64,000 nucleotides of DNA from Pseudanabaena sp. (lineage in GTDB: Bacteria; Cyanobacteriota; Cyanobacteriia; Pseudanabaenales; Pseudanabaenaceae). The stretch covers positions 1 through 64,000 of the forward strand of contig QBMK01000013.1 of assembly GCA_003249035.1 (NCBI GenBank), read 5' to 3'. Below are positions 17,505 through 28,096 of the stretch, piece by piece (position 1 is the stretch's first letter; every line of letters begins with the position of its first letter). A program made the translations under genes and the position numbers. The notes under the pieces are model-generated. The model did not search any database, was not told the origin of the DNA, and worked only from the letters and a program-made list of their open reading frames with translations.

Positions 17505-17560
17505 AAGTCAAAAAAGACAAAGCGCCCGCTATAGGGGCGCTTTATCTTTTTTGGCTTTTA
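17503..17560. terminator. bidirectional hairpin
   Basis: Long imperfect stem: aaaagtcaaaaaagacaaag... pairs with ...ctttatcttttttggctttt around a gcgcccg/ggggcgc core. It starts on the stop codon of the flavoprotein gene and precedes the stop of the GAF gene (minus), so it can serve both. Confidence 0.75.
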
Positions 17561-17579: not shown

Positions 17580-18122
17580 TCACGCATCACTAATTGATGG
17601 AGCAAAAGCCAGATCATTAGAATATTGGCGAATTAAGTCAATATCTGAGATTTTCCATGCTCTGACATCTTGACAATGATGTCCAACTAATAGTCCCCAT
17701 AGCTTGCCATGAGTTAAAACTGGTGCAACTAAATTTGAGCGCACTTGCATACCTCTCAAAAAATCTTGATGGCAAGCACTAATGGTCGCCTTCTCAATAT
17801 CATCAGTAGCCTTTATACGTCCCTCCAAATAAAGCCCCGCATATTCTAGATTGAAGCAGTCATCACCCCCCGTTGAACCAATGATCGAATACTTATGCTC
17901 ACTGATAGCTTCAAAGGTTACTTGTCCTTTCCATTGAGTGTAGAAATAGTACAAAACCACTCGATCAACATTAAGACTCTCTCTAAGCTTTTGTAGAGCA
18001 TCACTAACAACTCGATCTTGTTGTAGCTTGTTGGTAATCCGACTTAAAACTGAACTCAAATCGCGATTGGCAGGATTCATTGTGGCAATAGAAATGGTTA
18101 AATCTGTATTTACGACGGACAA
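17580..18122 (-). CDS. single-GAF protein with DXCF cyanobacteriochrome motifs
   Basis: A 180-residue protein that is essentially one GAF domain (about 30-170). It carries Asp87-Asp88-Cys89-Phe90, matching the DXCF motif that supplies the second chromophore-linked cysteine in blue/green-type cyanobacteriochromes, and Cys117-His118 in ISACHQDFLRGMQV, the place of the canonical bilin-binding Cys. The following LVAPVLTHGKLWGLLVGHHC matches the conserved end of bilin-binding GAF domains. There is no kinase, PAS, GGDEF or methyl-accepting output, so if bilin is bound the protein would signal by contact. An alternative start is Met15. It is monocistronic, divergent from recO. Bilin binding is inferred, not shown. 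Confidence 0.75.
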   Translation of the reverse strand: MSVVNTDLTISIATMNPANRDLSSVLSRITNKLQQDRVVSDALQKLRESLNVDRVVLYYFYTQWKGQVTFEAISEHKYSIIGSTGGDDCFNLEYAGLYLEGRIKATDDIEKATISACHQDFLRGMQVRSNLVAPVLTHGKLWGLLVGHHCQDVRAWKISDIDLIRQYSNDLAFAPSISDA

Positions 18123-25399: not shown

Positions 25400-28096
25400 T
25401 TAGGCTTCAGTATCTCCGTCTAATTCCTCAACTTCTGATACTTCTACTGCTGATGCTTCGACAACTACTTCAACAGCATTTACCAATCCATCACCGTTTT
25501 GAATTTCCACTTCTTCGATTTCTTCTTCCAATGCAGGCGGAACCAGAGTAGCACCAACGATCGCATCGGAGGAATCGAGTCTTTGGAGTCGGACACCTCT
25601 CGCAGTGCGAGACTGACAGGCGATCGCATCGGTAGATTGCCGCATGACGATACCGCGACTGGTGACGATCATAAGTTCATTCTTTTCATCAACTAAACAC
25701 AGTGAAGCCAGTTGATCTTGTCCAGATTTGAACTTGGTGACACGCAAGCCTTTACCAGCACGTTTTTGAATACGGAACTGACTAACAGGAACACGCTTAC
25801 CATAGCCGCCTCTGGTTACGACTAGCACCCAAGGTCCTTGAGCTTTTTCGTTTTCAACCTCGGTAGTCTCAGATTCTAGATTCTCATCTTCATTGACCAT
25901 TACCGTCAAATCAATATCTTCTTCAGAACTTTCAACTTCCTCGATTTCTGCCAAACCAGCAGGAATAATGTCCATACTCACGATCAAATCATCGCCAGTC
26001 AGACGCATCGATCGCACACCACGAGTATCGCGTCCCATCGGACGTAATTGCTCATGGTCGGTACGGAAGCGGATGGACATGCCTTGACGCGAACCGACGA
26101 TGATGGTGTTGTCGGCTTTGGCACGGCGCACCCAGCGGAGTAAATCACCTTCTTCTAAGGCGATCGCAATTAGACCATTGGAGCGAATATTCGCGAAGGC
26201 AGGAAGCTTGGTTTTCTTGATATAGCCACCAGCAGTGAGCATGACCAGATATTCATCTTCACTAAACTCGCTGATCGGTAAAACTGTAGTGATTTTTTCG
26301 TCAGATGCGATCGGTAATAGCTGTACGACAGCAGTACCGCGGGCAGCACGACCAGACTCGGGAACCTCGTATGCCTTGACTCCATAAACTTTGCCGCGAT
26401 CCGTAAAGAAGAGAACTTTGTCATGACTGCGACAAGCAAAGAAATGAGCGATCGCATCATCATCTTTGACGTTGGCGCTAGCTTTACCGCGTGTAGCACG
26501 ATGTTGAGCCGTGAAAGTATCAACAGGCATCCGTTTGACATAGCCTTGCTCTGTCACCATCACAATCGTTTCGCGATTGGCAATCAAGTCGGCAGTATCG
26601 ATATCGCCTTCATTGGGCAGAATGCGCGAGCGACGCGGGGTCGTAAATTCGGCTTTGATTGCTTCCAATTCTTCACGGGTAATCGTGAGAATGCGATCGC
26701 GATTGGCGAGAATATGTTGCAAATCGGCAATTTTAGCGACTAATTGATCGTGCTCGTCATGAATCTTATCAGCATCTTGAGCAGTCAAGCGGCGCAACTG
26801 CATCGCCAAAATTGCATCGGCTTGCGCTTCTGAAAGTCCATAGCTTTCAATCAATCCCAACTTCGCAGAACTGCTATCATCAGCCGCCCGAATTAGGGCA
26901 ATCACCGCATCTAGATGATTGAGCGCAATTAATAAACCTTGCAATAAATGATCGCGTTCTTCCGCTTTACGCAGTTCGTACTGAGTGCGGCGCGTAATTA
27001 CTTCATAACGGAAATCGAGAAATACTTGCAGAGCGTTGCGAAGCGTTAGCGTAATTGGTTCGCCATCTACCAGCGCCAACATATTGCAACTGAAATTCGA
27101 TTGCAGAGGTGTGGATTTGTAAAGATTATTTAACACCACTCTTGGATAGGCATCGCGTTTGAGTTCGATTACCAAACGCATACCATCGCGATCGCTTTCA
27201 TCACGAATGTCAGAAATGCCATCAATTTTCTTCTCATTGACCATTTCCGCAATGCGTTCGATCAGCGCGGCTTTATTAGTTTGGTAAGGCATTTCCGTGA
27301 TAATAATCGCCTCACGATCCTGCCGTCCAGAAGCCGAAATTGTCTCAAAGCTAGCCACTGCCCGCATAGTCACAGAGCCTCGCCCCGTCGTATAGGTTTC
27401 GCGAGCGCCATCGGTTCCTAAAATCAAAGCACCTGTGGGGAAGTCAGGACCTGGAATATATTGCATCAATTCCAAATCCGTCAGCATCGGATCGGCAATC
27501 AGCGCCACTAAGCCATCTACCAACTCGCCCAAGTTGTGCGGTGGAATGTTTGTCGCCATCCCCACGGCGATCCCTGAAGATCCATTTAGCAACAATTGGG
27601 GGATTCTGGCAGGCAATACTAGTGGCTCTTGCTGCGAACCGTCATAGTTATCGCCAAAGTTAACCGTATCGCGCTCGATATCCTGAATCAGCCCGAACTG
27701 TGAGATGCGGGTCAGCCGACATTCGGTATATCGCATCGCAGCGGCGGGGTCATTATCGACCGAGCCAAAGTTGCCATGTCCATCGACCATGCGATCGCGC
27801 ATCGAAAAGTCCTGCGCCATCCGTACCAGTGCTTCATACACTGCGGTGTCGCCGTGGGGGTGATATTTACCGATTACGTCACCAACCACACGGGCGCATT
27901 TCCGAAACGGGCGATCGGCGGTCATGCCCAACTCATGCATAGCGAAGAGAATGCGGCGATGTACTGGCTTGAGTCCATCGCGGGCATCGGGCAGGGCGCG
28001 ACCGACGATCACGCTCATTGCATACTCCAGATACGATCGCGACATTTCGCCGCGCAGGTCTGTTGGAATAATCCGATCTTCTAAGATATCAGTCAT
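25400..28096 (-). CDS. gyrA: DNA gyrase / topoisomerase IV subunit A
   Basis: DNA-breakage subunit of a type IIA topoisomerase. Start is placed at the ATG at 28094-28096 ([14 protein letters not shown]); the open frame runs 20 codons further but without family sequence. That gives 898 residues. The catalytic Tyr123 is in AAMRYTE, preceded by [10 protein letters not shown], with Thr84 where E. coli GyrA has Ser83. The C-terminal beta-pinwheel follows; its GyrA box is the degenerate QHRATRGKA rather than QRRGGKG, and an acidic insertion (about 720-755) and acidic tail are present. Cyanobacteria carry two GyrA-like paralogues, so GyrA versus ParC is not fully settled. gyrB is not adjacent. Confidence 0.93.

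What the first reader, a model, noticed from the sequence alone, without database searches (positions are those of the whole stretch)
17580..18122. Minimal single-GAF protein with both DXCF and CH cyanobacteriochrome motifs
DDCF at 87-90 and Cys117-His118 are spaced as in DXCF cyanobacteriochromes, in which two cysteines bind the bilin and give blue/green photocycles. The flanking LVAPVLxxGKLWGLLVGHHC fits the bilin GAF core. Most such GAF domains are parts of large kinases, cyclases or methyl-accepting proteins; here it is the whole 180-residue protein with no output domain.
Basis: partly seen in the sequence, partly recalled or inferred. Interest (0 to 1): 0.6.

Follow-up and report, generated by a model that had tools for sequence, protein, structure and literature searches.

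The report
Free-standing two-cysteine cyanobacterial light-sensor domain
This small gene encodes a light-sensing domain that cyanobacteria usually attach to a kinase or other output module; here, and in many other cyanobacteria, the domain is a whole protein with one common origin that keeps both likely pigment-binding cysteines, and how it passes a signal on is an open, testable question.

Summary
It is a single GAF domain; its best single-sequence match in the PDB is TePixJ, a two-cysteine (DXCF) cyanobacteriochrome (CBCR). It is not a one-off fragment. In 388 sampled genomes of the class, 131 hold a standalone copy (18 family-level groups). All 132 distinct copies that cover the motifs keep both cysteines, 28 residues apart, and end 22-35 residues after the last core tryptophan. 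They form one clade (100/99) on a long stem; rooted on phytochromes it lies inside CBCRs, beside histidine-kinase GAFs (90/85). No neighbouring gene is widely conserved; dN/dS is 0.10-0.20. Best reading: a bilin photoreceptor freed once from a histidine kinase that now signals in trans, as the short BLUF protein PixD does through PixE. Bilin binding, colour and partner are untested. My searches showed no paper on such a family, but key CBCR papers are not in the library. New variant of a known kind.

The parts
17580..18080 (-).
   Evidence: ORF; start codon from 10 chosen same-genus copies; family alignments
17601..18014 (-). GAF domain (PF01590), residues 37-174 of the 180-aa numbering
   Evidence: Pfam E=2.8e-16
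17853..17864 (-). DXCF motif (DDCF), second cysteine C89 (C75 of 166)
   Evidence: sequence; C in 132 of 132 copies, D at the first position in 118 of 132
17769..17774 (-). Canonical bilin cysteine and histidine, C117-H118 (C103-H104 of 166)
   Evidence: sequence; both in 132 of 132 copies
17583..17654 (-). Short C-terminal tail, 24 residues after the last core Trp (W156); no output linker or domain follows
   Evidence: 22-35 residues in 132 of 132 copies
17519..17543 (.). Terminator-like hairpin between this gene and the convergent FAD-oxidoreductase gene; called on the + strand, with T-rich tails on both strands
   Evidence: scan, (3 found in the region, 0.5 expected); minus-strand fold -33.9 kcal/mol, z -8.9

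Best explanation
It is a free-standing DXCF-type cyanobacteriochrome. Shown here: one GAF domain with a bilin-GAF fold (predicted model), both bilin cysteines kept across the family, a single clade inside the CBCRs, no output domain, and no widely conserved neighbour. Inferred from the known family: Cys117 (C103) holds phycocyanobilin, probably isomerised to phycoviolobilin; light flips the 15,16 double bond; and the DXCF cysteine adds to and leaves bilin C10, giving a blue-absorbing dark state and a green (or longer-wave) photoproduct. Inferred and least sure: the domain lost a histidine-kinase output once and now signals in trans by binding a separate partner in one light state only, as the short BLUF photoreceptor PixD does with PixE.
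For: Best PDB match by single sequence is TePixJ (E=1.4e-22); the model's top row is 4glq, the blue form of TePixJ (Z 17.7, rmsd 2.6 over 141 residues). Both Cys and the 28-residue spacing in 132 of 132. One clade, 100/99, in 100% of 200 bootstrap trees, inside CBCRs when rooted. Six of six multidomain relatives read in full carry a histidine-kinase-type ATPase domain, four of six also HisKA; four of the six belong to the nearest group, L217 is a near-copy of a member, L220 does not belong. The window's genome has one heme oxygenase and two full-length bilin reductases. Convergent gene downstream, divergent gene upstream. Purifying selection.
Against: No bilin binding or photocycle was tested. 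The Asp of DXCF is replaced in 14 of 132 copies. The model is weakest around the DXCF loop (model residues 51-80, block pLDDT 53-59), and bacteriophytochrome GAFs tie with TePixJ in the fold comparison (Z 16.8 against 17.7), so the fold alone does not say CBCR. With the family profile the best PDB match is 6oap, which lacks the DXCF Cys, and TePixJ is fourth. No partner was found. The place beside the histidine-kinase GAFs has 90/85 support with an unsettled bootstrap. Three same-genus genomes scored 99% complete lack the gene, so it is dispensable in some.
Confidence: 0.6

Rival explanations
1. It binds bilin but does not signal: a carrier, isomerase (phycocyanobilin to phycoviolobilin), scavenger or photoprotective pigment protein.
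For: No output domain in the standalone copies; no widely conserved partner gene; the DXCF Cys is involved in isomerising phycocyanobilin (introduction of PMC11284453).
Against: A carrier would not obviously need the strict upkeep of the whole core, both cysteines included (inference). Neighbour families gave no phycobilisome link, but only the 25 most frequent of 125 families were shown; the two CpcD-domain neighbours seem to be ferredoxin-NADP reductase (my reading).
Confidence: 0.2
2. It no longer binds bilin and senses something else, for example thiol redox state through C89 and C117.
For: Two invariant cysteines and no assay here.
Against: Residues shared with 49 CBCR rows are kept (Y98, G101, H118, H148); that they line the bilin pocket is recalled, not tested.
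Confidence: 0.08
3. It is a decaying fragment of a larger CBCR.
For: It lacks an output domain.
Against: Same C-terminal length in 132 copies, one clade, dN/dS 0.10-0.20.
Confidence: 0.02

Closest known systems
TePixJ GAF domain (DXCF CBCR, PDB 3vv4/4glq)
   Same: fold, DXCF and CH cysteines at the same spacing, many core residues
   Different: annotated as part of a methyl-accepting chemotaxis protein; about 30% identity; the family has its own residues Y59, Y61, T69, G85 and ends shortly after the core
Multidomain CBCR histidine kinases nearest in the tree (full proteins L215, L216, L218, L219; L217 is a near-copy of member L163)
   Same: 32-41% identity in the GAF domain; DXCF Cys in all; canonical Cys in all but L219's domain (L195), which has Glu there
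   Different: another GAF, PAS or MHYT part before, and a histidine-kinase-type ATPase after, the GAF domain
PixD/PixE (short BLUF photoreceptor and its partner, Synechocystis)
   Same: works-like comparison only: an 18-kDa photoreceptor that holds a separate response-regulator-like protein in the dark and releases it in light (passages of PMC5899715)
   Different: flavin and BLUF fold, unrelated by descent (recalled); its partner is known, here none is
miRFP670nano (engineered single-GAF fluorescent protein)
   Same: a CBCR GAF used alone, 17 kDa (start of abstract of PMC6336887; PDB hit)
   Different: man-made from one domain; binds biliverdin; no Cys at the DXCF place (alignment)

Membership tests
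Cyanobacteriochrome | GAF domain of the bilin-binding fold | tested here: met
   Pfam GAF 2.8e-16; top fold row 4glq, Z 17.7, tied with other CBCR and with bacteriophytochrome GAFs
Cyanobacteriochrome | canonical bilin Cys (followed by His in most rows) | tested here: met
   C117-H118, 132 of 132
Cyanobacteriochrome | phylogenetic place inside CBCRs, away from phytochromes | tested here: met
   tree rooted on 7 phytochrome GAFs, split 100/100
Cyanobacteriochrome | GAF alone suffices for bilin attachment and reversible photoconversion | not testable with these tools
   needs recombinant protein
Cyanobacteriochrome | usual (not defining) context: part of a larger protein with an output domain | tested here: not met
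   window gene: GAF only. In one search the standalone matches have open frames of 136-267 aa, and every longer frame has E of 2.4e-41 or weaker
DXCF CBCR | second Cys in Asp-Xaa-Cys-Phe | tested here: met
   DDCF in the window; C and F in 132 of 132, D in 118 of 132
DXCF CBCR | phycocyanobilin to phycoviolobilin isomerisation and reversible C10 adduct | not testable with these tools
   needs spectroscopy
Extended red/green CBCR | WXDXXL motif | tested here: not met
   no W-x-D-x-x-L by eye in the protein (definition)
Phytochrome | PAS-GAF-PHY or GAF-PHY array | tested here: not met
   only GAF found; tree places it away from phytochromes

The most novel reading that the evidence does not exclude
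An ancient class of short bilin photoreceptors: a two-cysteine CBCR domain that was freed once from a histidine kinase, was kept or spread across at least 18 family-level groups of cyanobacteria, and controls a separate, still unknown partner by light-dependent binding.
Probability: 0.45. Interest if true: 0.75.

Novelty: new variant of a known kind. Interest (0 to 1): 0.55.

Why it matters
CBCR GAF domains are mostly studied as sensor parts of larger proteins. A conserved family made of the sensor alone asks how such a domain can signal without a linker to an output, and offers a natural switch of about 18 kDa (my estimate) for partner hunting and optogenetics. The question is directly testable by coexpression with bilin synthesis and pull-downs under two light colours.

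Tried and rejected
Gene neighbourhood as a clue to function: not informative. In 41 loci the recurring neighbours are mostly shared by near relatives (recO and an MFS gene in the window's genus; ndhH, a methyltransferase and a dehydrogenase in f32). A few general families recur across groups (a glycosyltransferase next to the gene in L060 and L070; a pentapeptide-repeat gene near it in L058 and L074). Over 81 neighbours (ORFs under 90 aa skipped, mechanical ORF calling) no Pfam family occurs more than 4 times; the 4 are recO, and response regulators occur 3 times; 25 of 125 families were shown. NDH-1 genes near the locus in three groups I judged chance by a rough estimate of mine, not computed in a call.

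Virus origin: a scan of viral contigs with the family alignment found no relative. Plasmids: 9 records match, all under 60% identity; I did not examine them further.

Decay: rejected by dN/dS and conservation.

Literature: searches listed no paper on a standalone CBCR family, judged from titles, starts of abstracts and the passages I opened. Three CBCR papers looked up by id (two cited in PMC5240096, one by a doi recalled) are not held, so prior description is not excluded.

Colour prediction: the family has Val at my position 68 (132 of 132) and Leu, Met or Ile at 125 (132 of 132), against Phe at 125 in 30 of 49 CBCR rows. If these are the beta2 and alpha4 Phe positions of PMC5240096 (passages; the mapping is mine), a trapped-twist (teal) photoproduct is less likely. 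Too weak for the main claim.

Selection to know of: the 132 copies were taken as matches of at least 40% identity in open frames of at most 300 aa, so 'no output domain' within this set is partly by construction. The independent evidence is, where every frame over 300 aa has E of 2.4e-41 or weaker and the standalone ones reach 3.6e-44 or better except the partial G385 copy (3.4e-40), and the trees, where all sampled long-frame rows fall outside.

Rows dropped before trees: six of 49 CBCR rows (three partial, three copies or near-copies); one long branch; standalone rows thinned to 77, 35 and 25 of 132; 9 of 14 rows labelled phytochrome were used, and two of these (L200, L210) are CBCR-type GAFs that my script picked and that fell among CBCRs.

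Full report
What is there. The finding's interval holds an open frame on the minus strand. The frame can start at TTG 18122 (180 aa), but in ten same-genus copies that I chose the first possible start gives only 166-177 aa, which points to ATG 18080 and 166 aa here; other copies allow longer frames. DDCF is at 87-90 and CH at 117-118, the cysteines 28 residues apart. Pfam has one GAF domain (E=2.8e-16) and nothing else above its cut-off. The next gene downstream is convergent, with a terminator-like hairpin between; upstream lies recO, pointing away. So this looks like a single-gene unit.

Which window. The genus is most likely Pseudanabaena: same-genus genomes have contigs of the same lengths as named Pseudanabaena contigs, for example 87,623 bases; one such match bears the name Phormidium tenue.

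What it resembles. By single sequence the best solved structure is the TePixJ GAF domain, a DXCF cyanobacteriochrome, E=1.4e-22. With a 26-row family profile the best is 6oap, a dual-sensor histidine kinase whose GAF lacks the DXCF Cys, E=4.4e-35; two engineered miRFP proteins follow and TePixJ is fourth, E=9.9e-32. An AlphaFold model from eight sequences (mean pLDDT 78.8, weak in model residues 51-80, which hold the DXCF loop) has 4glq, the blue-absorbing form of TePixJ, as top row: Z 17.7, 2.6 A over 141 residues. Other CBCR GAFs and bacteriophytochrome GAFs (Z up to 16.8) are within one unit, so the fold says bilin GAF, not which kind.

A family, not a fragment. In 388 sampled genomes of the class, 134 match at E<=1e-38; 131 of them have a standalone copy and three (G042, G057, G346) match only within long frames (my count). 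The strict cut-off makes this a lower bound. With the sequences and the named contigs I got 133 distinct sequences; one (L045) runs off its contig before the motifs. The other 132 all have Cys 89, Phe 90, Cys 117 and His 118 and the spacing of 28. Asp 87 is kept in 118; 8 of the 14 exceptions lie in one genus group, g89. Stop-to-stop frames are 165-267 aa in 131 and 136 aa in one partial copy. After Trp156 the proteins run 22-35 residues and stop. The set was chosen with a frame limit of 300 aa, so I lean for the missing output: there every frame over 300 aa has E of 2.4e-41 or weaker, and the standalone copies, but for the partial one, 3.6e-44 or better. The copies fall in 18 family codes, plus one named contig. 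dN/dS against six relatives is 0.10-0.20; a seventh is saturated in dS. As a yardstick, 40 of 49 multidomain CBCR rows also have both cysteines.

Origin. A quick tree of 77 standalone and 43 multidomain rows puts all standalone rows on one side of a branch with support 100 and length 1.12. A careful tree of 35 and 42 rows gives 100/99 for the same split, in 100% of 200 bootstrap trees. With seven phytochrome GAFs as outgroup the family lies inside CBCRs, beside five multidomain GAFs (L163, L165, L168, L179, L195), support 90/85, bootstrap not settled. I read six multidomain relatives in full: four from that group, one near-copy of a member and one outside it. All six carry a histidine-kinase-type ATPase domain, four also HisKA. 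One loss of a kinase output in the ancestor is the simplest history; the tree alone does not prove its direction.

Family marks. Against 49 CBCR rows the family has its own nearly fixed residues: Tyr59 (95%, in none of the CBCR rows), Tyr61, Thr69, Thr84, Gly85 and Ile114. Shared with CBCRs are Tyr98, Gly101, His118, Asn130, Pro134 and His148, among others. Whether the family's own residues form a partner or dimer surface is a guess.

Context. No neighbour is widely conserved. In 41 loci recurring neighbours are mostly those of near relatives, with a few general families in two groups. Among 81 neighbours no Pfam family occurs more than four times (recO), response regulators three times; 25 of 125 families were shown. 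The gene can be absent: three same-genus genomes scored 99% complete have no short-frame match in a profile search; in two of them other frames lie next to recO, and in the third the contig ends there. The window's genome has one heme oxygenase and two full-length bilin reductases, so it should make bilins.

How it most likely works. Shown: GAF domain, both cysteines, CBCR ancestry, no output. Inferred from DXCF CBCRs (introduction of PMC11284453): the canonical Cys bonds the bilin, the DXCF Cys takes part in making phycoviolobilin and in a reversible bond to C10, and light interconverts a blue-absorbing and a green-absorbing form. The last step is inference: with no linker and no output the domain must act through another protein or through its own assembly. 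PixD, a small BLUF photoreceptor, does this with PixE, which it holds in the dark and releases in light (passages of PMC5899715). I put 0.8 on bilin binding and 0.6 on the full statement.

What is against it. Nothing here shows a pigment. No partner is known. A bilin carrier or isomerase without signalling fits the missing output as well. Prior description is possible, since three CBCR papers that I tried are not in the library.

Papers. PMC11284453: abstract, introduction and section 2.3. Passages only: PMC5240096, PMC5899715, PMC5578081, PMC10151467, PMC6798134. All others: search listings.

Verdict. The added finding is a widespread, single-clade family of standalone DXCF-type CBCRs. It is a new variant of a known kind, of moderate to good interest because it is easy to test.

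Noticed in passing
L213 (G000:C10:66535-66654): A third bilin-reductase match covers only the last 40 profile positions and holds a TGA: possibly the remnant of a lost gene.
   Followed up: no
L006 and L212 (G000:C15:22970-23461 and 26936-27601): A GAF domain related to CBCRs lies about 3.5 kb from a bilin reductase gene in the window's genome.
   Followed up: no
L067 and L068 (G172:C5): One genome has two standalone copies about 1.8 Mb apart, on different branches of the family tree.
   Followed up: partly
L051-L054, L095, L100, L106, L114 (genus code g89): These eight copies have Ser (seven) or Arg (one) in place of the Asp of DXCF while both cysteines stay; their colour may differ.
   Followed up: no
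window 17519-17543: Strong terminator-like hairpin between two convergent genes.
   Followed up: yes
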